Shown here: one piece after another, positions 4,248 to 19,252 of the stretch | Layout: every line of letters begins with the position of its first letter | How positions within the stretch are numbered: the first letter of the stretch is position 1 | Assembly (NCBI RefSeq): GCF_000174755.1 | Contig: NZ_ACLQ01000035.1 | Span: forward strand, 62,001 to 126,000 | Direction: 5' to 3' | Length of the DNA stretch: 64,000 nt | From: Capnocytophaga gingivalis ATCC 33624 | GTDB taxonomy: Bacteria > Bacteroidota > Bacteroidia > Flavobacteriales > Flavobacteriaceae | Notes under the pieces: model-generated | Told to the model about the DNA's origin: nothing | What the model saw: the letters and a program-made list of their open reading frames with translations, nothing else | Database searches by the model: none | Program-made: the position numbers and the translations under genes

Positions 4248-5144
4248 TCACCAATTGAACTTTACCATCAACTCATGGATATTGCGTATGCTTGCTGAGG
4301 CCTTGGGCTGTAGCGTACTTTCGAATCCATAACCTACTGAGAGATAGAACTTAGGAATATTAAACAATATATATCCATTGGCCGCTTGAGTGGTTCTATA
4401 GGTAGCCCCTGCCTCCAAGAAACCCCTATAAATAACAGAAGCTGTAGCACTCAGCTGATATTGACTCCCTTTGGAAACATAGAATAGATAAGAAGGCTTC
4501 ACTGTAAAGTCGTCTGTAAGAGGGAAGTAATACCCCCCAGTACTATAGAGAAGCATTCTTTCAGAGACTGTGGTTACCCTATCCTCTACAAGCTTTGTTT
4601 TATCCGAAGCGAGCAGGTTGGGAGCTGAAACTCCTATATAGAACTGCGGTCTTGTATAATAAACACCTACCCCTACATTGGGCTGGAATTTTCCTGAAAT
4701 CCCTTGTAGATAAGGGTCATACTCCTTGTTATAGGTTTTAAATCGTGTTCCATCAAGGTAATATAAATTTCCTCCAGCCTTAAGCCCTAAATAAATAGTA
4801 GAACTTTCTGTAAGAGGTAAGGAATAAGAAAAATCAGCAAAAAAAGCGGTTTGCCTCTGTAGAAACACCTTATCACTGACCACCGAACCAGCTAAGCCTA
4901 TACGATTGGTAATACGGTGAGTGGTATTGAGTGTCTGTACCTGAGGGGCATCTGCATTCAAGGATTGCATCCATTGGCTACGCAAGTTCAGTGAAATTGT
5001 ATGTCCTTTTTCTTCTCCTACAGCAGCAGGATTATTTATATTCTTGAGCTGATCATAGAAGATAAAATCTGTAGATTGTGCATTGAGAACTTCCCCCAAA
5101 AGGGTTACTGTCAGAAATAATAAGATTTTTTGTGCTTTTTTCAT
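4248..5144 (-). CDS. PorP/SprF-family type IX secretion outer-membrane protein
   Basis: A 298-residue protein with a signal peptide (about residues 1-22, ending LNAQ) followed by the family opening block in which a strand of aromatic and Asn residues leads to NNPAAVG, then beta-strand-rich sequence typical of an outer-membrane barrel (RSQWMQSL, GLAGSVVSD). PorP/SprF proteins work with the T9SS and, in flavobacteria, SprF-like proteins are needed for secretion of cargo with type B C-terminal domains. The gene lies 3 bases downstream of exactly such a cargo gene, so it is most likely its dedicated partner. The function as partner is inferred from context. Confidence 0.85.
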   Translation of the reverse strand: MKKAQKILLFLTVTLLGEVLNAQSTDFIFYDQLKNINNPAAVGEEKGHTISLNLRSQWMQSLNADAPQVQTLNTTHRITNRIGLAGSVVSDKVFLQRQTAFFADFSYSLPLTESSTIYLGLKAGGNLYYLDGTRFKTYNKEYDPYLQGISGKFQPNVGVGVYYTRPQFYIGVSAPNLLASDKTKLVEDRVTTVSERMLLYSTGGYYFPLTDDFTVKPSYLFYVSKGSQYQLSATASVIYRGFLEAGATYRTTQAANGYILFNIPKFYLSVGYGFESTLQPKASASIRNIHELMVKFNW

Positions 5145-8443: not shown

Positions 8444-8475
8444 TTTGGATTAAAAAAGAATTAAACGTAAATTTG
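8444..8475 (+). promoter_or_regulatory. Bacteroidota-type promoter of the LRR/TonB/HmuY locus
   Basis: TTTG (8444-8447), 20-base spacer, TAAATTTG (8468-8475). Transcription would start near 8482, leaving a leader of about 120 bases before the first ATG at 8604, unusually long for this window and large enough for post-transcriptional control. Confidence 0.6.
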
Positions 8476-8603
8476 CAGCCAAAGATGTTATTTATAATTA
8501 ATCTTAGTTTATTTCTACATTTCTGAAGATTATCATACATGAGCCTTATCTTAAGTTCATATAAAATAAGAATTAATTTTTACAATCTATAATTTACACA
8601 AAA

Positions 8604-9773
8604 ATGAGAAAAATAATCATCTGCTCAGTGATGCTCCTAAGTCTCACTACTACAGTGCAATGTACTAAACAAACTACCGAAGAGCGTGAGGTAGAACAAG
8701 CTGGATCTGCTATCCTAAGGGGGGAAACGCCTCCTGTAGATAGTGTGGGAAAAGTTGGGGATTATTACATTAATGAAAAAACAGCAGAGTTCTATGGTCC
8801 CAAAAAATCTGCCGAAGAGGGAGGTTGGGGTGCTCCTGTTCGCTTTGGAAAAGATATCAGTAGCAAAGCACGTATCCTCTCCGGCACTGGAATGCCTAAG
8901 AATACTGATGGAAACGAGGGGGATTGGTATCTTGATAAAGAGACTAAAAAACTCTATGGCCCCAAGACTAAAAACCAATGGGGAAATGGTATCGTACTGG
9001 GAGGAAACCCTAACAATGGTTCCAATCAGGATAACGATGCTTCCTTACCTAATTACCGCTTAGGAGATGAAGGGAAAACCCTGCTTGCTTGGACGAACCC
9101 TAAAACTCAAGTTATTGATATGCGTAAGGATGCCAAGCTAAACCAAGTAGAAAAGCTCGAAATTGGAGCTGTTTCTGAGCAACGTGCTTTACAGAAATTT
9201 GTTCTCGGCGACCAAGTGGGAATCATAGGAGCCTCTGCTTTTAAGAACTGTTTTTATTTGGAAGAATTTGTATTCAATCGCAAACTAACTACCATAGAGG
9301 AAACTGCCTTTCAGTATTGCTTATACTTGGAAACCATGGAGCTCCCTGAAGGATTGGAGGTCTTAGGCCAGCAAGCCTTTGTCAGCTGTGTAAAACTTAA
9401 AAAAGTAGTAGTTCCTTCTACTTGTAAAAATATACATGGGGCTGCTTTTGAAAAATGTGAAGCCTTAGAAGAAGTTGTCCTCAAAGAAGGTATAGAGAAT
9501 ATCTATACCAATGCTTTTCAAGGTTGTAAAACCCTACGAAAGGTGGTATTTCCAGCTTCTTTGAAAGGCTTAGGTGCTGGAATCTTCAAGGATTCTGGGG
9601 TGACAGAGGTGACTTTCAAAGGAAATGTTCCTGAGAGTGGTCTCGGACAGGGTACTGGAAGTCCTTTCGAAGGAGTCGCTACTCTTGAAAAAATCTATGT
9701 CCCTGAGCAGTTCATAGAGGATTATAAAGCTCAACTCTCTGACTATAAAAATATTATTCATCCTATTAAATAA
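8604..9773 (+). CDS. BspA-like leucine-rich-repeat lipoprotein 1
   Basis: 389 residues. A lipoprotein signal peptide ends at Cys20 (VQCTKQ). Residues about 45-135 hold two copies of a module with the core GDYYINEKTAEFYGPK / GDWYLDKETKKLYGPK followed by a Trp-Gly motif. After a short linker come BspA-type (LRR_5) repeats of about 23 residues (for example IGASAFKNCFYLEEFVF, IEETAFQYCLYLETMEL, IYTNAFQGCKTLRKVVF), closed by a conserved end IYVPEQFIEDYKAQ. Such LRR proteins are usually surface adhesins or ligand-binding proteins; Lys two residues after the Cys resembles the Capnocytophaga surface-lipoprotein signal. First gene of the locus, 7 bases before the next. Confidence 0.85.
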   Translation: MRKIIICSVMLLSLTTTVQCTKQTTEEREVEQAGSAILRGETPPVDSVGKVGDYYINEKTAEFYGPKKSAEEGGWGAPVRFGKDISSKARILSGTGMPKNTDGNEGDWYLDKETKKLYGPKTKNQWGNGIVLGGNPNNGSNQDNDASLPNYRLGDEGKTLLAWTNPKTQVIDMRKDAKLNQVEKLEIGAVSEQRALQKFVLGDQVGIIGASAFKNCFYLEEFVFNRKLTTIEETAFQYCLYLETMELPEGLEVLGQQAFVSCVKLKKVVVPSTCKNIHGAAFEKCEALEEVVLKEGIENIYTNAFQGCKTLRKVVFPASLKGLGAGIFKDSGVTEVTFKGNVPESGLGQGTGSPFEGVATLEKIYVPEQFIEDYKAQLSDYKNIIHPIK

Positions 9774-9780
9774 TAATTCC

Positions 9781-10959
9781 ATGGGAAATCTAATCAAATC
9801 AATTGTTATATCTACCTTGGGATTATTCACTATCGCCTTTATCTCTACCAGTTGTAACAAGGAAACAGTAGAGCAGCTCAAGGTAAAAAAAGCCAGTCGT
9901 ATCTATATAGGTGACGGCACTCCACTCTTGGACAAAGGAGAAGCAGGTGATTATTATATTGATAAACTCACAGGACTTCTCTATGGCCCCAAATCCGAAG
10001 AAAATGGTTGGGGAAAAAATCCTATCAAGCTCCTTGATGACAAGCAGTTATCTGGTAATACTTTTGTATCTGGTCAAGGTGCTCCCTCAGCTGACCAAGG
10101 AAAAATAGGTGACTTATACATTGACAAACAGAATCTTAAGATGTATGGTCCTAAAAGTGAACAAGGTTGGGGCAACCCTTACGAATTGGGGGATAGAACC
10201 CCTCATACTCCCAAAGACGAATGGCCTGACTATAGGCTTAGCAAAGATGGCAAAACCCTCCTTGCTTGGGTAAACCAACGTACTATACACATTGACATGC
10301 GTACTGACTCGAAACTCAATCAAGTAACTACTATTGCCAAAGAAGCTTTTACCCCTTCGTATGGTCTTACTTCTATTATCATTTCTGACAATGTAACCAA
10401 AATAGAAGAAAGTGCTTTCTCCGCACTGCCCTTCTTAGAAGTGGTCACTCTTCCTGGTAGTATCAAGGAAATTGTACGAGGACTATTCAACCAATGTCCT
10501 AGACTTAGGGTCATCAATCTTAATGAAGGAATACAGAGCATAGGAGATTTTTCTCTCTCAGATGCAAGTTTTGAAGAAATTAACCTACCTTCCTCCGTAC
10601 GCAAGATAGGTGGATATGCCTTTGCCAACAATGAAAAACTACTGAAAATAAAACTGCGTGAAGGCCTTAAAGAAATCGGAAGTAGTGCTTTTGCCCATTG
10701 TACAGAACTCACTCATTTTGAGATTCCTGCAAGTGTAGAACGCATAGGAGAAGGAGCTTTTTCAGACTGCCATAATGTAAATACCCTTGTACTCCACTCC
10801 AAAGAGATTCCTAAGTGGCCTAACTATCACTTAGCTGATTTCGAAGAACTTGTGGACATATACGTTCCTGATGAAAGTGTAACCCTCTACAAAAATGACC
10901 CAGAATGGGAACCCGATTGGGGAAAGATAAAACCTATCTCCAAAATGCCCAAACAATAA
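9781..10959 (+). CDS. BspA-like leucine-rich-repeat lipoprotein 2
   Basis: 392 residues and a paralogue of the previous gene over its whole length. Lipoprotein signal peptide to Cys25 (STSCNKE), two N-terminal modules with cores GDYYIDKLTGLLYGPK and GDLYIDKQNLKMYGPK, the shared linker (WPDYRLSKDGKTLLAWVN), then LRR_5 repeats (IEESAFSALPFLEVVTL, IGGYAFANNEKLLKIKL, IGEGAFSDCHNVNTLVL) and the end IYVPDESVTLYKND. The two genes probably arose by tandem duplication and diverged in the repeats. A strong hairpin follows before the next gene. Role inferred as a surface binding protein. Confidence 0.85.
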   Translation: MGNLIKSIVISTLGLFTIAFISTSCNKETVEQLKVKKASRIYIGDGTPLLDKGEAGDYYIDKLTGLLYGPKSEENGWGKNPIKLLDDKQLSGNTFVSGQGAPSADQGKIGDLYIDKQNLKMYGPKSEQGWGNPYELGDRTPHTPKDEWPDYRLSKDGKTLLAWVNQRTIHIDMRTDSKLNQVTTIAKEAFTPSYGLTSIIISDNVTKIEESAFSALPFLEVVTLPGSIKEIVRGLFNQCPRLRVINLNEGIQSIGDFSLSDASFEEINLPSSVRKIGGYAFANNEKLLKIKLREGLKEIGSSAFAHCTELTHFEIPASVERIGEGAFSDCHNVNTLVLHSKEIPKWPNYHLADFEELVDIYVPDESVTLYKNDPEWEPDWGKIKPISKMPKQ

Positions 10960-10969
10960 AAAGGAGTTT

Positions 10970-10999
10970 GACTTAGCCTACACTGATGTAGGCTAAGTC
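10970..10999. other. Perfect hairpin between LRR lipoprotein genes 2 and 3
   Basis: A 13-bp perfect stem (GACTTAGCCTACA and its complement) with a CTGA loop. The plus-strand side is not followed by a T run, so it is not a classical terminator; it may be an attenuator, an mRNA-stabilising or an RNA-processing element that sets the ratio of upstream and downstream genes. Confidence 0.6.
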
Positions 11000-11043
11000 A
11001 GCCCCTAATCATTCTTCTATTTTTTAATTCCAACTATCACTTT

Positions 11044-13962
11044 ATGAAAAAAGTATTCTTAGCCAGTTTAGCCATTTTCACAGCTATTCTTATCCTCAAT
11101 TGTAGCAAAGAGGAATCCAAAAACAACGCTTCTTTGAAGCCGTTCGAACTTACCCCTACCGAGGTAAAAGTACCCATAGGAGAAACTACAACACTTACCA
11201 TTAGCTCTGGCAATGGCTCATATAGAATTAATCAAAGTACTGAAAGTAAGGAAATTGTAGAAATCACTCTAAACAACGAAAATCAAAATATCCTTATAAA
11301 AGCTCTTAAGTCAGGTACTACAACCGCCTCTGTCACTGATCTGCTCAGCAAGACAGATCTTACTATCTCCATACAAGCAATCATTCCTCCTTCTTACTAT
11401 ACCTTGAGTGAAGACAAAAAAACACTGCTTAAGTGGAATGATACTCATTTGGAAGAACTTGACCTTTCTTCTGACCCTATTCTCAAAGAAATTACTTCTA
11501 TCGGACAAGGTGCTTTCAAGGAAAATAGTACCCTAAAGAAAATTACACTTCATGAAAAGATTGTTTTCCTCTCTAAGGAAAGCTTTGCAAAGGTATCCAA
11601 ATTAGAGACTATCAAGCTACCTAATTCTATAACTTCTATAGGTGAAGGTGCTTTTGCTGGTTGTACAGCACTAAAGGAAGTTACACTTCCTGAAAATGAT
11701 TCCTTTACCTCTATTCCTAAAAGAGCTTTTGAAGAATGTAAGAGCCTTAGTACCTTACACCTTCCTAACACAATTAATGAGATAGGTATTCTTGCTTTTG
11801 CTGATGCAGGGCTCAAGGAAATACATTTCCCTGAGAACCTACTGACAATTAACCAGCAGGCTTTTGCTGGCAATAAAGAGCTTACTGAAATTACAATTCC
11901 TAAGAATGTGACCCTTATCAGCTTAGCGGCTTTCCAAGAAACAGCCCTGAAGACTATTAAAATAGAAGCCACCCTCCCACCTGCCCTGAAGTTTGGCATA
12001 GACTCCCAAACACAACAAGCGATAGAACCTTTCCCCTCCTCTACCCTACAGAATATCTTTGTTCCTGAGCATGTGACCCAGACCTATCGTGACAAAGAAG
12101 GATGGCATAACTACGCTACTATTATCAACAAAAACAGGGAATTCAAGCACTTAATTATCCGCCCTACTGAGGTAACTCTTTTTGTAGAGGAGGTAAAACA
12201 GTTAGAAATTGTATCTGGAAACGATGATTATGATCTCGAAAGATCAGAGAGCTCTAAAGAAATTGCGTTCATTGGAATCACTAACAATCAGAAAATATTA
12301 GGTATCCGAGGAAAAAAAGTAGGCGCTTTCAAAGCTACCATTGTGGATAAGATAACCAAAGAGAAAGTAGAAATCTCTATCACAGTACTCAATTCTTTTA
12401 CACTTTCTCCCAAGCAATTAACTCTTACTGTTGGGCAGAGCAAAGAAGTTATCATAGATGGCAATGGAGACTATGAAATCCCTACCAATACTCATGTAAC
12501 CCTGAGTCTTTCTGGAGATAAAAAGAAACTTATAGTCAAGGGATTACAAGAGGGAGATACACAAGTGGTTATCAAGGATAAGAAAGCCAATCTGTCAGCT
12601 ACCCTAAGTATCAAAGTAATGGCCGCAGCACCCTCTATCAAAGAATTTAGCCTATCTGCAAGCCAACTCACTCTAAAGATGAACGAAGAGAAAAGAGTAA
12701 TCCTACAAGGAAATGAAGATTATGAGATAGGAAACTGCCAAATCGCACAGCTTACCCTATCAGATGATAAGAAAACGCTTACTGTAAAAGCAGTAAAAGC
12801 AGGAGAAGAAACCATTAAGATAAAAGACAAAAAGGCGAACAAGGAACTGCCCTTACATATTGCTGTCCTAAGGCCTTTTAGTATCAATCCTAGTACTTTG
12901 AATATCAAAGTAGGGCAAACTCAATCCATTGCTATAGAGGGAGGAGGACGTTACCAGATAAGTCAAAACTCTTTGGTAGAGGTAGTCTCCCAGAGCGAAC
13001 ATCTGATTACCTTCAAAGGGAAAACTGTAGGTAGTGGAAGTATCTCTATCAAAGACGAGCGTGCCAATAAGACCCTTGAGCTTACTGTAAAAGTTACACA
13101 AGCTTTGGTTCCCTTTCATATCTCCCCTTCTACCATACATGTGAAAGTAGGTGAGACAAAGACTGTAACTATCACCGGCAATGGAAAATATGAACTAAGT
13201 AAAACCTCCAGCCCTTATGTAGAACTAACCCTTAACCAAGCAGGAACACTTACTATCAAGGGAAAAGCCAAGGGAGAAGAAACACTCTATGTACGTGACC
13301 TCAATAGTGTTAGTGAAGAGAAAGACAAAAATGACGACAAGGATCATGATTCCGAGGACAATGAAGAAGCCAAAAACTATGAGTCTCGTAAACTCACCAT
13401 TACGATACTCCCCGCTACTATGGAGAAACAATTCGAAGCGGATGGATATACTCTTAACAAATGGCTGGATATGAGTACTGAAGAGGTGGATTTCACCCAG
13501 ATTCCCGCACTAAAAAATATAGGAATGATAGGCGAAGGGGCTTTCAAAGGACTTACACAGCTAAAAAAGATAGTTTTACCCAGTAGCCTTGAGTATATAG
13601 ATTCTGATGCTTTCGCTCATTGTTCCCTCTTAGAATCTGTTAAATTGCAAGGAAATAACTTAGATGAGATAGCAAGAGGCGCCTTCTCTGACTGTAGAAA
13701 CCTCCGACGTTTGGATATACCTTCCTCTGTTCGCAAGATCAATGGAGAAGCTTTTAATGGCTGTACTTCATTAAGAACCATTATTCTCAGACACACCTCT
13801 GTTTGCTCCTTACATATGGCCATGGGGTATATAGAAAACTTAGTTGCCATCTATGTACCTGATTCTCTTGTAGAATCCTACAAAAATGATATGGACTGGG
13901 AACTTTATAAAAACAAAATAAAGCCTATTTCTGAGCTAACTAATAGAAAAATAAGAAAATAA
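11044..13962 (+). CDS. Large lipoprotein with Ig-like (BIG2-type) repeats and two LRR blocks
   Basis: 972 residues. Lipoprotein signal peptide to Cys20 (LNCSKEE; Lys and acidic residues after the Cys match the Capnocytophaga surface-export pattern). A first Ig-like repeat (about 30-118) is followed by LRR_5 block 1 (about 119-355), five more Ig-like repeats starting near residues 369, 450, 532, 610 and 688 with the pattern LSPxxLTLxVGxxxxVxIxGNGxYEI, and LRR block 2 (about 793-972). The last Ig-like repeat carries a very acidic insertion (about 755-783), possibly a metal site or linker. The stalk-like Ig repeats would hold the LRR blocks away from the membrane. Ligand unknown. Confidence 0.83.
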   Translation: MKKVFLASLAIFTAILILNCSKEESKNNASLKPFELTPTEVKVPIGETTTLTISSGNGSYRINQSTESKEIVEITLNNENQNILIKALKSGTTTASVTDLLSKTDLTISIQAIIPPSYYTLSEDKKTLLKWNDTHLEELDLSSDPILKEITSIGQGAFKENSTLKKITLHEKIVFLSKESFAKVSKLETIKLPNSITSIGEGAFAGCTALKEVTLPENDSFTSIPKRAFEECKSLSTLHLPNTINEIGILAFADAGLKEIHFPENLLTINQQAFAGNKELTEITIPKNVTLISLAAFQETALKTIKIEATLPPALKFGIDSQTQQAIEPFPSSTLQNIFVPEHVTQTYRDKEGWHNYATIINKNREFKHLIIRPTEVTLFVEEVKQLEIVSGNDDYDLERSESSKEIAFIGITNNQKILGIRGKKVGAFKATIVDKITKEKVEISITVLNSFTLSPKQLTLTVGQSKEVIIDGNGDYEIPTNTHVTLSLSGDKKKLIVKGLQEGDTQVVIKDKKANLSATLSIKVMAAAPSIKEFSLSASQLTLKMNEEKRVILQGNEDYEIGNCQIAQLTLSDDKKTLTVKAVKAGEETIKIKDKKANKELPLHIAVLRPFSINPSTLNIKVGQTQSIAIEGGGRYQISQNSLVEVVSQSEHLITFKGKTVGSGSISIKDERANKTLELTVKVTQALVPFHISPSTIHVKVGETKTVTITGNGKYELSKTSSPYVELTLNQAGTLTIKGKAKGEETLYVRDLNSVSEEKDKNDDKDHDSEDNEEAKNYESRKLTITILPATMEKQFEADGYTLNKWLDMSTEEVDFTQIPALKNIGMIGEGAFKGLTQLKKIVLPSSLEYIDSDAFAHCSLLESVKLQGNNLDEIARGAFSDCRNLRRLDIPSSVRKINGEAFNGCTSLRTIILRHTSVCSLHMAMGYIENLVAIYVPDSLVESYKNDMDWELYKNKIKPISELTNRKIRK

Positions 13963-13974
13963 TTACTTATAAAG

Positions 13975-14847
13975 ATGAAAAAAATATATATACTTCCGTT
14001 ACTTTCCTTACTACTATTTGCTTGTCAAAAGGAGAACTCTCAAGGAAAAGAAAACCCTGGCAAGCCTACACCAGAGAAGCCTCAGCCTACACCTATACCT
14101 CCTACTCCCCCTACCAAGGAGAAGACCCCTGAGGAATTACTCGAAGGAGAATGGCGCTTGCTTTCTATCAAAGATAGCAATGATCCTTTGGAGAGAGAAC
14201 TCTCCAACTGTAAGCGACAATCCTCTATTACCTTTTCCAAAGAGTACAAAGCATCAGAAGTTTCTTATTACTTAGACAAAGAATTGGGAGAATGCAAACA
14301 TAATTCTCACCAATATACCGTAAGTATTCAGAAGGATCAACTTACCCTTACAGAAGGAACCCAAAAAGAGACTTACACCTATCAGATTCAGGAAAATATT
14401 CTTACCCTTAGTTTCCCTCTAAAACAGAAAGATGGAAAAACTATCACAGTAACTACCACCTATAAAAAGCATTACCTATACAATCCTAAAAAGGAATTGG
14501 TGGGTACTTGGTATATTCATCACTTAAAAAGAGCGGGATATGATTACAATGATATACTGGAAAATGGACAATGTATGACTAAAGAAAAGATCATATTTAC
14601 AGATACAGATATCAAAATCTATCAATATGATTTGGGTAGCTTACAGTGTAAAGAAGTCATTTACCAAGGAGCATATGAGATTTCTGAAGATCTGAGTAAA
14701 ATCATCGTTACCTCCAAAAGAAATGGATTCAAAGGTAACCGAGAATTCTTCCTCAATGATGGCACTTTGGAACTGTTTGGATATATAGCCAATGGGGATT
14801 TAGAACAGAAATTTTATAGAAAAGAAAAGAAATATACTGATGAGTAA
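13975..14847 (+). CDS. Lipoprotein with two lipocalin-like domains
   Basis: 290 residues with a lipoprotein signal peptide to Cys17 (FACQKEN), a Pro-rich linker (about 27-50), and two similar halves of about 110 residues. Each half starts with a G-(E/T)-W motif (LEGEWRLLSIKD; LVGTWYIHHLKR) and continues as beta-strands with a Cys pair (ELGECKHN; LGSLQCKEV), typical of Bacteroidota lipocalin-like lipoproteins. Its end overlaps the start of the TonB receptor gene by 8 bases, so the two are translationally coupled. It could bind a small hydrophobic ligand passed to the receptor, but that is inference. Confidence 0.75.
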   Translation: MKKIYILPLLSLLLFACQKENSQGKENPGKPTPEKPQPTPIPPTPPTKEKTPEELLEGEWRLLSIKDSNDPLERELSNCKRQSSITFSKEYKASEVSYYLDKELGECKHNSHQYTVSIQKDQLTLTEGTQKETYTYQIQENILTLSFPLKQKDGKTITVTTTYKKHYLYNPKKELVGTWYIHHLKRAGYDYNDILENGQCMTKEKIIFTDTDIKIYQYDLGSLQCKEVIYQGAYEISEDLSKIIVTSKRNGFKGNREFFLNDGTLELFGYIANGDLEQKFYRKEKKYTDE

Positions 14848-16942
14848 TAGGATTTTTTTCACCTTATTTTTCTCTTTATTCCCATATATCCTCCTCTCTC
14901 AAGAAGAAAAAGATAAGATGTATTCTTTGGATTCTGTGGTCGTATCTGCTCAAATAGAACCCCAATCGATTAAGAAATCTGTTAAGAATGTACAGGTCAT
15001 TAGCAAGGAACAGATTCAAAAAATGGGTGCAGTAAACCTCGCTGATGTGCTCAACCAATATGTCAATATCACAGTGCTTCCCAATGTCAATACTGGAAAA
15101 CAGACAGTATCCATGATGGGATTAGGAGAAAACTATTTCAAGGTTCTGGTAGATAATATCCCCTTAGTCAGTGAGAATGGTTTTGGTAATAATACAGACC
15201 TTTCACAGGTGAACTTGGACGATGTAGAACGTATCGAAATTGTAGAGGGAGCTATGGGGGTCACCCATGGAGCTAATGCTGTCACGGGTATACTCAACAT
15301 CATTACTAAGAAATCAAATAAACATCGTTGGGAAGTGGGCTATACCATACAGGAAGAAAGTATTGGTTCCGAATACAATCTTTCGAATAAGGGACGACAT
15401 ATACAAACCTTCAAGGCCTCTCATAGCCTAAATGATTCTTGGTTTTTCTCCTTGGGAAGTACTCATAATAAGTATCAAGGATTTTGGAATGGATATCATG
15501 GAAAAAACTATTTCCAAACAGATGGGAAAAGAGGGTATCGCACCTCTCCCTATGAGAGCCTACAGAGCAATGCTCTACTTAGCTATCGAAAAGATAAGCT
15601 AAAGCTCCTCTATAAGTTTGAATATATGAACGAACGGTTTGAGGCTTATGATCGCACTGCTGAATCTACCTTTAGTCCGCTCTACAGAAGTTATCATTTT
15701 GGGGATGACCGTCGTGATTTTTATTTGCGCTATTTCCATCATCTGAATCTCAATGGAGCACTCTCTAAGTGGCTCTATAATGTTTCTTTTTCTTACCAAT
15801 ACCAAGAACGCAAAGAAGAAGAGTTTCGCTATATGATCGAGTATCAAAAGGAAATCAATAATAAGGAAAGAAAAACACATTCGATGCGGGTATTCTACTC
15901 CACCGGAAGTGTAAGTCGTCCCTTAGCCCACAAGAAACTCCTCTGGCAAATGGGGTATGAACTGACACGTAATACCGGATTCTCCTTGATCACTGATCAA
16001 GGACAAACCCTCAAGGAAGTAGAGCGACAGGTGGATAACTATGACCTATATTCTGTATTAGAATGGCATCTTTCTGATCATTTTTCCCTTCGCCCTGGGG
16101 GCAGAGTTTCCTTCCAGCGTCTTTTTCAGAACCAATATGCTTATTCCTTGGGTAGCAGATGGACTCTTGATAACCATTGGGAATGGAGGGCTTCTGTAGG
16201 AAAATCCTATAGAACTCCCAGCTTTGAGGAACTATATACTAAGAGTGTCTTCTTAGGGCATGCTTTCTTAGGAAATGAAAACCTACTTCCTGAAAAAGGC
16301 CTCTCGGCAGAGACCAGTATCAAAAAAACTTCTCTCATAAGAGAGGAAGGGGTACTAACCCAGAGCTTAGGGCTTGATTATAACAATATCAAGGACAAAA
16401 TCCATAGTGTACTCTTGGATATGACCAATGGAATGCCACATACGCAATATATCAATATCAGTAAGTACACAAGCTATAACCTCTCTACCTCTCACAGTCT
16501 AAAGCTATCAGCCTGGGAGGCTTCTCTAAGAGGTGCTTTTACTTGGATTTCTCAAAAAATTGATACAGAACGCTATAGGACTGATGATCGCTACCTACTG
16601 AATATCAATGCCAATGCTAGCCTTTCCTATACAGTAGAGAAGTGGAACACTTCTTTTTCAGCTTATTACAAATTCGTAGGAAAGTCTCAGATGTGGCAAA
16701 TGTCCAGTACAGGATATGTCATAGCTGACTTAGACCCCTATGGGTGGTTGGATGTTTCTATACAAAAAAGATGCTTTCAGCGAAAGTTAGAAATCACCTT
16801 AGGCTCACGAAATGTACTTAATACTATGGATGTGGGACTGTATCAAAAAACTATGGCTGGGGAAAAAGTGCGACTTAACTTTCCTATGGGAAATGGACGA
16901 AACTATTTTCTAAAGCTTACTTATAACCTGAATATAAATTAA
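14840..16942 (+). CDS. TonB-dependent outer-membrane receptor (probable heme/iron type)
   Basis: 700 residues: signal peptide (about 1-20), a TonB-box-like stretch (LDSVVVSAQ), a plug domain (about 40-150, with VERIEIVEGAMGVTHGANAV and GILNIITKK) and a 22-strand-type barrel. There is no N-terminal carboxypeptidase-like extension, so it is not SusC-like. Near residues 455-485 it has YRTPSFEELY and GNENLLPEKG, corresponding to the YRAP and NPDL signature blocks of heme receptors such as HmuR, with changes. The HmuY-like lipoprotein gene 12 bases downstream supports a role in heme or iron uptake. Substrate is inferred, not proven. Confidence 0.85.
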   Translation: MSNRIFFTLFFSLFPYILLSQEEKDKMYSLDSVVVSAQIEPQSIKKSVKNVQVISKEQIQKMGAVNLADVLNQYVNITVLPNVNTGKQTVSMMGLGENYFKVLVDNIPLVSENGFGNNTDLSQVNLDDVERIEIVEGAMGVTHGANAVTGILNIITKKSNKHRWEVGYTIQEESIGSEYNLSNKGRHIQTFKASHSLNDSWFFSLGSTHNKYQGFWNGYHGKNYFQTDGKRGYRTSPYESLQSNALLSYRKDKLKLLYKFEYMNERFEAYDRTAESTFSPLYRSYHFGDDRRDFYLRYFHHLNLNGALSKWLYNVSFSYQYQERKEEEFRYMIEYQKEINNKERKTHSMRVFYSTGSVSRPLAHKKLLWQMGYELTRNTGFSLITDQGQTLKEVERQVDNYDLYSVLEWHLSDHFSLRPGGRVSFQRLFQNQYAYSLGSRWTLDNHWEWRASVGKSYRTPSFEELYTKSVFLGHAFLGNENLLPEKGLSAETSIKKTSLIREEGVLTQSLGLDYNNIKDKIHSVLLDMTNGMPHTQYINISKYTSYNLSTSHSLKLSAWEASLRGAFTWISQKIDTERYRTDDRYLLNINANASLSYTVEKWNTSFSAYYKFVGKSQMWQMSSTGYVIADLDPYGWLDVSIQKRCFQRKLEITLGSRNVLNTMDVGLYQKTMAGEKVRLNFPMGNGRNYFLKLTYNLNIN

Positions 16943-16954
16943 TTACATAAAGAT

Positions 16955-18151
16955 ATGAGAAAATATTTTTTGATGCTCTCCCTCATTGGAGGGCTATTGG
17001 TAAACTGCTCTAAAGCAGATGAAACGGAGAAAAAACCGCTTCCCCCTACCCCCTCCCCAGCTCCTACCCCTTCTCCTGAGAAGAATCTTATAGAAGCAGG
17101 TAAGGCATATACCCTACTCCCTGAAGTAGGTGGAGCTAACGAACCCAATCAGGTATATGTAGATCTCAGTTCTGGGAAAATGACTTCCATAAGAAGAGAT
17201 GCTTGGGACTTGGCTTTCTATTGTGGAGACGATTTCAGGGTTATCCTAAATCCCTCTATTGCTATGACGGTAAAGGAAACTCCTTTTACCGATATACACA
17301 AGTTTGTAGCTCCTGTATCTGAAATTCTCTTTGATGATGACCCTAAGCTACCTTCTCGAAAACCTATTGCCGATCACCTAATTGATGATCCTAGAGGTAT
17401 CCTACAAGAAGAAGCAGGACTAAAAGGAACCGGTACGGCTATTGCACAGATTTCTGAAAAGGAAGAAGAAAATAAAGTATACCTCCTAAACCTTGGGAAT
17501 GAGATAAGTACCACTACTCCTGAAACTGGAGGTATAAACCTACAAGGAGCACACCGAGGTTTTATGAAGATACGTGTAAAAAGAAGTGGTAATGGATATG
17601 AGATCTCTTATGCCAAAAATGATGAACTCAAAGATATCAAAACTGTTACTATCTCTAAAAATGCAGATTATAACTTTGTTTTCCTAAACCTCTCCACTGG
17701 AAAAACCGTACAAGTACAACCCAAAAAGAAGGATTGGGATCTATGCTTTACCCCCTCTACTAGTTGGTTCAGTACTGAAAAAGAGAAAATAGGTTCTCCT
17801 TTTAATAGTACTACTTTTTTTCCTGATATGATTATCAGTAACCTACATGGCCAAACGAAAGCTACTATATTTCAATCCTCTGATAAGAGTGAAGAAAAGC
17901 GTAATGTTGAATATAGCGCTTATACGAAGGAGAAAGCCTTGAAAATTAATTTTTCTTTAGAAAAATATAATAACCAGATGATTATAGGTAGAAATTGGCG
18001 TGATAATCAATTGGGAGCTCTTATAAGAAATGAGTTATTTTATCTTATCAAAGATGGAGATGGAAACTACTTCAAGCTCAAGATATTATCTATGAAAAAT
18101 GATAAAGGAGAGCGTGGTTACCCTGCCTTCGAATATGAGTTGCTAAAGTAG
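16955..18151 (+). CDS. HmuY-family lipoprotein with two HmuY-like modules
   Basis: 398 residues. Lipoprotein signal peptide to Cys18 (VNCSKADE), a Pro-rich linker (about 28-46), then two modules that each start with the same pattern: VYVDLSSGK...AWDLAF (about 67-90) and VFLNLSTGK...DWDLCF (about 246-270). This pattern opens HmuY-family domains, which in Porphyromonas gingivalis capture heme at the cell surface and hand it to the TonB receptor HmuR. Usual family members are near 200-220 residues, so this one seems to be an internal duplication. The heme-ligand histidines of HmuY are not obvious, so the ligand may differ. Last gene of the locus. Confidence 0.75.
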   Translation: MRKYFLMLSLIGGLLVNCSKADETEKKPLPPTPSPAPTPSPEKNLIEAGKAYTLLPEVGGANEPNQVYVDLSSGKMTSIRRDAWDLAFYCGDDFRVILNPSIAMTVKETPFTDIHKFVAPVSEILFDDDPKLPSRKPIADHLIDDPRGILQEEAGLKGTGTAIAQISEKEEENKVYLLNLGNEISTTTPETGGINLQGAHRGFMKIRVKRSGNGYEISYAKNDELKDIKTVTISKNADYNFVFLNLSTGKTVQVQPKKKDWDLCFTPSTSWFSTEKEKIGSPFNSTTFFPDMIISNLHGQTKATIFQSSDKSEEKRNVEYSAYTKEKALKINFSLEKYNNQMIIGRNWRDNQLGALIRNELFYLIKDGDGNYFKLKILSMKNDKGERGYPAFEYELLK

Positions 18152-18167
18152 AGACAAAGGGTAAAAC

Positions 18168-18350
18168 AAAAAGGCTGTCTGAAAAGTCTAAAATATTGTC
18201 TTTCAAAAGTTTAAATTGAATATTTTTATATTTTATTCTATTGAAAATCAGGTATTTTAGATTCTGTTGTAGGGGCAAAGTCCGCGAACAAGCGGAGTAT
18301 GTGATGCAATTTGCCCGCTAAAAACAAGACTTTTCGGACAGTCTCTTTTT
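18168..18350. repeat. 183-bp element with terminal inverted repeats (MITE- or REP-like)
   Basis: The left end (GCTGTCTGAAAAGTCT, 18174-18189) and the complement of the right end (ACTGTCCGAAAAGTCT) match at 14 of 16 bases and are bordered by A and T runs. Inside lie nested palindromes: GGGCAAA (18273-18279) with TTTGCCC (18310-18316), and CCGC with GCGG (18282-18295). It encodes no protein. It separates two convergent genes and could also terminate both. The internal palindrome resembles dispersed intergenic repeats seen in several Bacteroidota genomes. Confidence 0.6.
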
Positions 18351-19252
18351 TAGCACCTCTCGGCTACTTCCTTACAATCTCTCCTTATCTTCTTATAGAA
18401 AAGCGGATAGGTAAGCCAGTAGAAGAGCCATACAATAGGCATTAGTATCCATATAGCAAAGTACAGATATGCATGGAAACACTTAAGAAGAAACTTCCTC
18501 CGGGGACTCTGATAAATAGCTCTTGCCCAAATTCTAAACAAACGATTAGCTTTCTTTTCAGCTGAGAGTAGAAAAGGCTTTACTTGTACCCCCCCTTGAG
18601 CAACAATCTCTTTTTGTAAAGACTGCTGATACTCTCCTTTTTGTGAATGGTTTAAAACCAATTCTCCGTATTGAGTAGCATTGGTTATATCCTTCTGAGA
18701 AACTCCTGGTAGAGGGAAAACACCTAAGTACTTATCTTTCTTGCCTGTAAAGAGCCAATGAACAATTGTCAGCACACTGATATGGTTATAATGGCGATCA
18801 GTAAGAGCAATATTAGCAACTATACAGGCACCCTTCTTCACAAGCATACTTCGCACTTTCTCTTGTGCTTTTATCCACATATTACGAGTCCCTGAAAGAG
18901 TTACTACTGGTTTTCCCTCCAAAAGTGCTCGTGCTTGCTCACTTTTAAGAAAGGAAGTCACCGGAATAGATGGGGAAAGATACCATACTTGGTAGGCTAA
19001 AACCACAAGATCATATTCTTGTGTCTCGATATCAGGAGGCATTGCCTTTATTGGTTGAGGTAACTCTAAAAAAGACTCTGGAAAAGCCCCAAAAAAACTC
19101 TCATTTGTCCATGGAAAAGGATAAGGAGTCTCCATTTGTATCTCATAGAAATCTACAAGTATCCCTTGTTTTTGAAAAGGAGCTACAAAATTATCCGCTA
19201 TTTCCTTGAGTTGACCTGACTGGGTGTAATATATGACTAATATACGTTTCAT
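18350..19252 (-). CDS. Flavodoxin-like / NAD(P)H-dependent reductase family protein with C-terminal membrane segment
   Basis: 300 residues. The N-terminus MKRILVIYYTQSGQ is a flavodoxin-type FMN phosphate-binding loop, followed by the alternating beta-alpha pattern of that fold to about residue 190 (VVLAYQVWYLSPSIP, VVTLSGTRNMW). The last 40 residues form one or two hydrophobic segments (YFAIWILMPIVWLFYWLTYP), suggesting attachment to the inner membrane. Proteins of this layout occur in flavobacterial dialkylresorcinol/flexirubin clusters (DarA-like), but none of the partner genes is here. I chose the ATG at 19252; an ATG at 19273 would overlap purL. Specific activity unknown. Confidence 0.7.
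   Translation of the reverse strand: MKRILVIYYTQSGQLKEIADNFVAPFQKQGILVDFYEIQMETPYPFPWTNESFFGAFPESFLELPQPIKAMPPDIETQEYDLVVLAYQVWYLSPSIPVTSFLKSEQARALLEGKPVVTLSGTRNMWIKAQEKVRSMLVKKGACIVANIALTDRHYNHISVLTIVHWLFTGKKDKYLGVFPLPGVSQKDITNATQYGELVLNHSQKGEYQQSLQKEIVAQGGVQVKPFLLSAEKKANRLFRIWARAIYQSPRRKFLLKCFHAYLYFAIWILMPIVWLFYWLTYPLFYKKIRRDCKEVAERC

What the first reader, a model, noticed from the sequence alone, without database searches (positions are those of the whole stretch)
8444..18151. LRR lipoproteins, TonB receptor and HmuY-like protein in one locus
Six tightly packed genes (gaps 7, 84, 12, -8 and 12 bases) run from one promoter: three BspA-type LRR lipoproteins, a lipocalin-like lipoprotein, a TonB receptor and a HmuY-like lipoprotein. 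HmuY/HmuR heme capture is established; coupling to LRR lipoproteins and a lipocalin-like protein suggests a surface complex that binds a host heme protein (or other carrier) before TonB transport. I infer the complex from linkage only.
Basis: partly seen in the sequence, partly recalled or inferred. Interest (0 to 1): 0.66.

Follow-up and report, generated by a model that had tools for sequence, protein, structure and literature searches.

The report
Heme-uptake operon with LRR lipoproteins
An oral Capnocytophaga carries a known type of heme-import gene pair expanded, in this genus only as far as we searched, with leucine-rich-repeat and lipocalin-like surface lipoproteins and a neighbouring secreted protease, which suggests a machine for stripping heme from a host protein; the extra parts are untested.

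Summary
The six genes and five gaps are as described. The order LRR1-LRR2-(LRR3)-lipocalin-TonB receptor-HmuY-like recurs at 6 loci in 5 of 20 Capnocytophaga genomes, window included, one locus split over two contigs. A Bacteroidota-type promoter precedes LRR1 in 7 of 7 clusters. The receptor/HmuY-like pair differs from Porphyromonas HmuR/HmuY and resembles flavobacterial rhuR-rhuA: in 73 of 73 named non-Capnocytophaga loci its neighbour is a homologue of the solved hemophore RhuH (66) or a HemS-HmuTUV heme operon (7). The LRR-associated receptors form one clade (100/100). RhuH is absent from all 5 module genomes (chance 0.13). Best reading: a heme receptor pair plus surface capture and proteolysis accessories. 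Heme for the core pair is well supported by context; the roles of LRR proteins, lipocalin and protease are inference. A strong hairpin between LRR2 and LRR3 leaves a single transcript unproven.

The parts
4248..5144 (-). PorP/SprF-type T9SS outer-membrane protein, likely partner of the protease
   Evidence: PF11751 E 8e-47, TIGR03519 181.9 bits over a cut-off of 90.55; directly behind the protease also in G015:C65, G001, G008, G013 and G015:C64
5148..8183 (-). Secreted metalloprotease (1011 aa): M12B reprolysin domain, TSP3 repeats, T9SS type-B C-terminal signal; [11 protein letters not shown] zinc motif intact
   Evidence: PF13583 E 1.2e-33, TSP_3 E 1.3e-91, CHU_C E 3.3e-28; TIGR04131 57.5 bits over a cut-off of 35; zinc motif; adjacent to all 6 LRR-type loci
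8444..8475 (+). Bacteroidota-type promoter TTTG-N20-TAAATTTG
   Evidence: same pattern upstream of LRR1 in 7 of 7 clusters, window included
8604..9773 (+). LRR1: BspA-type LRR lipoprotein with two N-terminal GDYYIN..YGPK modules
   Evidence: PF13306 E 3.2e-39; model pLDDT 81.7, pTM 0.62, best PDB matches are Bacteroides LRR surface proteins; orthologues
9781..10959 (+). LRR2: paralogous BspA-type LRR lipoprotein
   Evidence: PF13306 E 1.7e-45; orthologues
10969..11000 (.). Perfect 14-bp hairpin between LRR2 and LRR3; possible attenuator or RNA processing/stability element
   Evidence: z -6.1; a hairpin of different sequence at the same place in L062 (z -5.9)
11044..13962 (+). LRR3: 972-aa lipoprotein, LRR blocks at both ends with Ig-like repeats between; C-S-K-E-E matches the published surface-export signal
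   Evidence: PF13306 E 1e-60 and weaker Ig-like hits; signal
13975..14847 (+). Double Lipocalin_4 lipoprotein
   Evidence: PF13648 E 6.5e-20, two stretches; no full-length relative outside the genus in 397 family genomes, where up to 6 candidates per genome were scored
14840..16942 (+). TonB-dependent receptor, heme type by context; start overlaps the end of the lipocalin gene
   Evidence: FRxP, His474 and NxxL conserved; heme-gene context; tree
16955..18151 (+). Double-length HmuY-type lipoprotein
   Evidence: PF14064 E 1.2e-24; model pLDDT 88.6, pTM 0.85, HmuY-type structures Z 8.4-10.6
18165..18351 (.). MITE-like dispersed repeat with 25-nt terminal inverted repeats, directly downstream of the operon
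   Evidence: 23 matches, mostly partial, the window's own copy included, in the own genome

Best explanation
This is an expanded flavobacterial heme-acquisition locus. Core, well supported by context: the TonB receptor (14840-16942) imports heme handed to it by, or shared with, the double-length HmuY-type surface lipoprotein (16955-18151), as in rhuR-rhuA of Riemerella. Expansion, inferred: LRR1, LRR2 and LRR3 and the double lipocalin are surface lipoproteins that dock a host heme carrier or receive the released heme. The type IX-secreted M12B metalloprotease encoded next to them opens or degrades the carrier. The module could thereby do the heme-releasing step for which Riemerella uses the hemophore RhuH, which is missing here. 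Shown here: gene content, conserved order, promoter element, families, predicted folds, heme-gene context of relatives, single origin of the associated receptors. Inferred: surface assembly, the nature of the carrier, co-operation of the protease, iron regulation.
For: Gene order at 6 loci in 5 of 20 Capnocytophaga genomes, one split over two contigs. Receptor followed by the HmuY-like gene in 79 of 80 named loci by script; in the 80th (L142) the ORFs follow too but my mechanical start overlaps by more than the script allowed. RhuH homologue (PDB 8xjc 'haemophore', E 5.6e-92) in 66 and HemS-HmuTUV in 7 of 73 non-Capnocytophaga loci (families). The published rhuH / rhuR-rhuA locus has the same divergent layout and serves heme use from hemoglobin; its receptor/HmuY genes are up in iron limitation. 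hfpR-hfpY, a similar pair, serves heme use and HfpY binds heme. His474 and NxxL invariant. HmuY fold. Protease adjacent to all 6 loci, co-directional downstream with PorP at three; in a further cluster LRR1-LRR2-lipocalin-protease-PorP run on one strand with gaps of 1-26 bp. Full-length protease orthologues (57% or more) only in the 5 module genomes; a decayed copy in G007, which also has a receptor remnant. Receptors of the expanded type form one clade, 100/100. LRR proteins act in heme acquisition elsewhere: HupY, Hal.
Against: No binding, expression or iron-response data for any of these genes. Orthology with RhuR or HfpR could not be tested directly, and loop 7 of HfpR is reported as extended with partial motif conservation, unlike this receptor. 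The receptor scores 95.9 bits on the NCBIfam heme-receptor subfamily, cut-off 316.85. His/Met heme ligands of HmuY could not be assigned in the double-length protein. In the window the protease is divergent, so not in the same transcript. RhuH is missing also from 9 genomes that lack the module, and non-overlap of 5 and 6 among 20 has a chance of 0.13. HemS is absent in 20 of 20 genomes, so the cytoplasmic fate of heme is open. A second HmuY/receptor locus exists. LRR_5 proteins are common in the genus, so LRR by itself says little. An F. columnare hmuY mutant grew normally.
Confidence: 0.6

Rival explanations
1. The core pair imports heme, but the LRR, lipocalin and protease genes are a separate adhesion or tissue-degradation module that merely became linked to it.
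For: The module exists once without the receptor pair (LRR1-LRR2-lipocalin-protease-PorP at G015:C64) and the pair exists without the module (G012, G014, two G015 loci). BspA-type LRR proteins are commonly adhesins (recalled); the LRR1 model resembles Bacteroides surface proteins.
Against: Conserved order with the receptor at 6 loci; lipocalin and receptor genes overlap by 4-14 bp at all 5 loci where both lie whole on one contig; one receptor clade goes with the module.
Confidence: 0.28
2. The expanded-type receptor clade has shifted to another ligand (for example another porphyrin, a cobamide or a transferrin-derived iron form) and the surface lipoproteins bind that ligand's carrier.
For: The clade is separated from the other receptors by a well supported branch, none of the 7 named Capnocytophaga loci has RhuH or HemS nearby, and the closest PDB receptors by sequence are Cir, with BtuB and FepA-type receptors next.
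Against: His474 and NxxL are kept in all 81 receptors, expanded type included; the HmuY-type partner is kept.
Confidence: 0.1
3. A Sus-like iron capture system as described in C. canimorsus for transferrin.
For: Same genus; a multi-lipoprotein TonB machine (recalled; I saw only its citation, the paper itself was not held).
Against: None of the six proteins has a SusD family match and the receptor shows no N-terminal CarboxypepD domain.
Confidence: 0.01

Closest known systems
rhuH / rhuR-rhuA of Riemerella anatipestifer (PMC11967795, abstract and passages seen)
   Same: TonB receptor followed by a HmuY-like (so annotated in PMC5429918, passages seen) heme-binding outer-membrane protein; flavobacterial relatives of the window's pair carry a RhuH homologue next to the receptor, divergent in 65 of 66
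   Different: No RhuH in this genome; LRR, lipocalin and protease genes added.
hfpR-hfpY of Flavobacterium psychrophilum (PMC9331221, passages seen)
   Same: Receptor and distant HmuY-family hemophore in one operon; heme/hemoglobin use under iron scarcity
   Different: A DoxX gene lies between them there; no LRR, lipocalin or protease reported in the operon; loop L7 of HfpR is extended with only partial motif conservation, so orthology is doubtful
hmuYRSTUV of Porphyromonas gingivalis
   Same: HmuY fold, TonB receptor; heme capture aided by secreted proteases (gingipains, recalled)
   Different: Order reversed, no hmuSTUV here, double-length HmuY-type protein
HupY of Streptococcus (PMC6593403, abstract and outline seen) and Hal of Bacillus (one passage in PMC8977872)
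   Same: LRR surface proteins involved in heme acquisition
   Different: Gram-positive, no TonB system; resemblance of g1-g3 to the HupY model is far under its cut-off
Iron capture system of C. canimorsus (citation seen in PMC4447898; paper not held)
   Same: Same genus, TonB plus lipoprotein machine for host iron (recalled)
   Different: Sus-like (recalled); this cluster has no SusD

Membership tests
HmuY family (PF14064) | Pfam profile match over cut-off | tested here: met
   87.6 bits against 27, two stretches
HmuY family (PF14064) | HmuY fold | tested here: met
   Top eight rows (five titled HmuY, HmuY-like, HmuY analogue or PinO; three B. fragilis proteins, HmuY-type by recall) Z 8.4-10.6, 137-160 residues aligned, rmsd 2.4-4.5; then a DUF4466 protein at 6.8 and the rest at or below 3.3. 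Foldseek alone gave weaker hits, best E 4.8e-4. Aligned ranges span both halves, so two domains versus one fold with a long insertion is open
HmuY family (PF14064) | Two axial His or Met heme ligands | tested here: inconclusive
   No pair of ligands could be assigned from A2/A6; ligands differ between known members
hmuYRSTUV operon | hmuSTUV (CobN-like and membrane proteins) downstream | tested here: not met
   After 18151 come a repeat, a minus-strand 307-aa ORF and a minus-strand 1223-aa ORF that I read as PurL
rhuR-rhuA type heme system | Receptor directly followed by a HmuY-like gene | tested here: met
   12-bp gap; 79 of 80 relatives by script
rhuR-rhuA type heme system | RhuH gene upstream | tested here: not met
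   Absent in the window's genome; present in 66 of 73 non-Capnocytophaga loci. I therefore call it a relative of this type, not an instance of the whole RhuH system
rhuR-rhuA type heme system | Orthology with R. anatipestifer RhuR and RhuA | not testable with these tools
rhuR-rhuA type heme system | Heme uptake and iron regulation | not testable with these tools
   needs mutants and RNA
BspA-type LRR lipoproteins | LRR_5 repeats and lipobox | tested here: met
T9SS type-B substrate with PorP/SprF partner | TIGR04131 C-terminal domain and adjacent PorP/SprF | tested here: met
C. canimorsus Sus-like iron capture system | SusC/SusD pair | tested here: not met
   No SusD family among the six proteins

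The most novel reading that the evidence does not exclude
A Capnocytophaga-specific, protease-armed heme-piracy machine: a surface assembly of LRR and lipocalin lipoproteins holds a host hemoprotein at a RhuR-like receptor while a dedicated type IX-secreted M12B protease opens it, taking over the heme-extraction step that relatives give to the hemophore RhuH.
Probability: 0.35. Interest if true: 0.68.

Novelty: new variant of a known kind. Interest (0 to 1): 0.5.

Why it matters
Flavobacterial heme receptors are described, but how the heme is taken out of the host protein is still being worked out; R. anatipestifer RhuA, for instance, cannot take heme from hemoglobin. A conserved cluster that places LRR surface proteins, a double lipocalin and a type IX protease beside such a receptor gives a concrete, knock-out-ready candidate for that step in oral bacteria, and would bring LRR proteins into Gram-negative heme uptake, as HupY and Hal did for Gram-positives.

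Tried and rejected
HmuY/HmuR operon of the Porphyromonas type: rejected for this pair (no hmuSTUV in the flanks, other gene order); a separate HmuY/receptor locus lies at G000:C28. Sus-like iron capture: no SusD. HemS route: absent in 20 of 20 genus genomes, so the Flavobacterium HemS-HmuTUV context could not be carried over. Mutual exclusion of RhuH and the module: consistent, but 0.13 by chance and confounded by descent. Sequence search of the double lipocalin against PDB gave nothing useful. Pfam on the N-terminal parts of LRR1 and LRR2 gave no family. The sigma-70 scan was no better than shuffles (35 against 34.8); only the Bacteroidota-type motif, recalled from memory, was informative. 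PDB folds not listed for the HmuY-like model beyond the HmuY-type rows say nothing. Paper searches for the combination listed no paper whose title or shown abstract describes LRR lipoproteins or a lipocalin with a receptor/HmuY pair, or this protease; most hits were not opened, so this is only absence in those listings.

Full report
OBSERVATION. Families: three LRR_5 lipoproteins, a double Lipocalin_4 lipoprotein, a TonB receptor and a HmuY-type lipoprotein. The window's five lipoproteins have C-X-K at the predicted lipidated Cys, and the third LRR protein has C-S-K-E-E, which fits the published surface-export signal C-X-K-(D/E)2 of Capnocytophaga canimorsus (passages of PMC5080379 seen); the other four fit it only in part. 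In the homologues the script picked an upstream Cys for three LRR1, one LRR2 and one lipocalin protein, so I judge those by the alignments. The start coordinate 8444 is the -33 box of TTTG-N20-TAAATTTG (consensus recalled). A site of this pattern lies within 400 bp upstream of LRR1 in 7 of 7 clusters, window included. The generic sigma-70 scan was uninformative.

WHERE IT IS. The window is G000:C3:62001-126000 of a 2.66-Mb genome.

CONSERVATION. In the genus (20 genomes) the receptor/HmuY-like pair occurs at 10 loci in 7 genomes. At 6 of these 10 loci, in 5 genomes (G000, G001 twice, G008, G013, G015), LRR1, LRR2 and the lipocalin precede it; an LRR3 gene stands between LRR2 and the lipocalin in G000, G015 and one G001 locus, while in G008 and G013 an LRR3-like gene follows PorP instead. 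The G015 locus is split at contig ends. The other 4 (G012, G014, two in G015) are bare pairs. Lipocalin and receptor genes overlap by 4-14 bp at all 5 unsplit loci. A receptor remnant lies in G007. In a tree of 18 receptors (10 Capnocytophaga, 8 of 73 others) the six of the expanded type form one clade (100/100); the bare-pair receptors fall on the other side with Flavobacterium. The double-length HmuY-like protein is widespread: 58 of 299 family genomes at E 1e-3, 52 of them at 1e-60 or better. The double lipocalin had no full-length match outside the genus among 397 family genomes; both searches scored at most 6 candidates per genome.

THE CORE PAIR IS A HEME SYSTEM BY CONTEXT. Among 80 named loci (best 80 of 230 relatives), 79 show the HmuY-like gene directly after the receptor by script; the last differs only in my start choice. 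Seven are Capnocytophaga. In the other 73, 66 have a DUF6607 gene next to the receptor (65 divergent, 1 on the same strand; in one the mechanical starts overlap) and 7 have HemS with an ABC transporter whose ATPase passes the heme-ABC equivalog cut-off in the one tested. One such DUF6607 protein (L095) matches PDB 8xjc, 'haemophore', at E 5.6e-92, i.e. RhuH of R. anatipestifer, whose gene shares a bidirectional, Fur-box promoter with rhuR-rhuA (PMC11967795, passages seen). F. psychrophilum hfpR-hfpY is a second tested pair of this layout (PMC9331221, passages seen), though HfpR has an extended loop 7, so I do not claim orthology. The HmuY-like model folds like HmuY (Z 8.4-10.6); plain Foldseek gave weaker hits (best E 4.8e-4). 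In 81 receptors, the Arg and Pro of FRxP, His474 and N479/L482 of NxxL are invariant; the paper names FRAP/NxxL and a loop-7 His as features of heme/hemoglobin receptors. That His474 lies in loop 7 is by analogy; no receptor model was made. FRxP- and NxxL-like motifs also occur in other receptors. A caution: an F. columnare hmuY mutant grew normally.

On the minus strand next to LRR1 lie an M12B metalloprotease with TSP3 repeats and a type-B T9SS signal, zinc motif intact, and a PorP/SprF gene. A protease of this type adjoins all 6 expanded loci (divergent in G000, G015:C65 and toward one G001 locus). In G008, G013 and the other G001 locus protease and PorP follow HmuY on the same strand, 62-147 bp behind it. 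G015:C64 carries LRR1-LRR2-lipocalin-protease-PorP on one strand without the receptor pair. Full-length orthologues of 57% identity or more were found only in the 5 module genomes; shorter paralogues at 43-50% over the protease part occur in others, and G007 has a decayed copy.

MECHANISM. Shown: composition, order, families, predicted folds, context, single origin. Inferred: LRR and lipocalin proteins hold a hemoprotein or receive heme; the protease opens it; the HmuY-type protein passes heme to the receptor. RhuH is missing in all 5 module genomes and present in 6 of the other 15; chance 0.13, so this is only consistent with replacement. LRR proteins bind heme or act in its uptake in Streptococcus (abstract) and Bacillus (one passage).

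TRANSCRIPTION. The 84-bp gap holds a 14-bp perfect hairpin (z -6.1), and G015 has a hairpin of other sequence at the same place (z -5.9). On the + strand the window's hairpin lacks a T run directly behind it. It may attenuate, process or do nothing. A MITE-like repeat (25-nt inverted ends, 23 mostly partial matches genome-wide) lies behind the operon at 18165-18351.

VERDICT. A new variant of a known kind: a flavobacterial heme receptor pair with a genus-specific (as far as searched) surface and protease module.

Noticed in passing
window 18165-18351: MITE-like dispersed repeat with 25-nt terminal inverted repeats, 23 mostly partial matches in the genome (own copy included), directly downstream of the operon.
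   Followed up: partly
window 10969-11000 and L062:11751-11784: Hairpins of unrelated sequence but similar design at the same intergenic place in two genomes, which might mean selection for structure rather than sequence.
   Followed up: partly
L071:10141-14248 (G000:C28): A second HmuY locus: a two-domain HmuY protein, a single-domain one and a TonB receptor with a carboxypeptidase-like N-terminal domain.
   Followed up: partly
L178:1409-9217 (G015:C64): LRR1-LRR2-lipocalin-protease-PorP cluster without receptor or HmuY; its lipocalin protein matches Lipocalin_4 in four stretches.
   Followed up: partly
window 8604-9005 and 9781-10200: N-terminal tandem modules with GDYYIN..YGPK..GWG motifs in LRR1 and LRR2 match no Pfam family.
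   Followed up: partly
20 Capnocytophaga genomes: No HemS-family (PF05171) heme-degrading protein in any of 20 genomes, so the cytoplasmic fate of imported heme is open.
   Followed up: no
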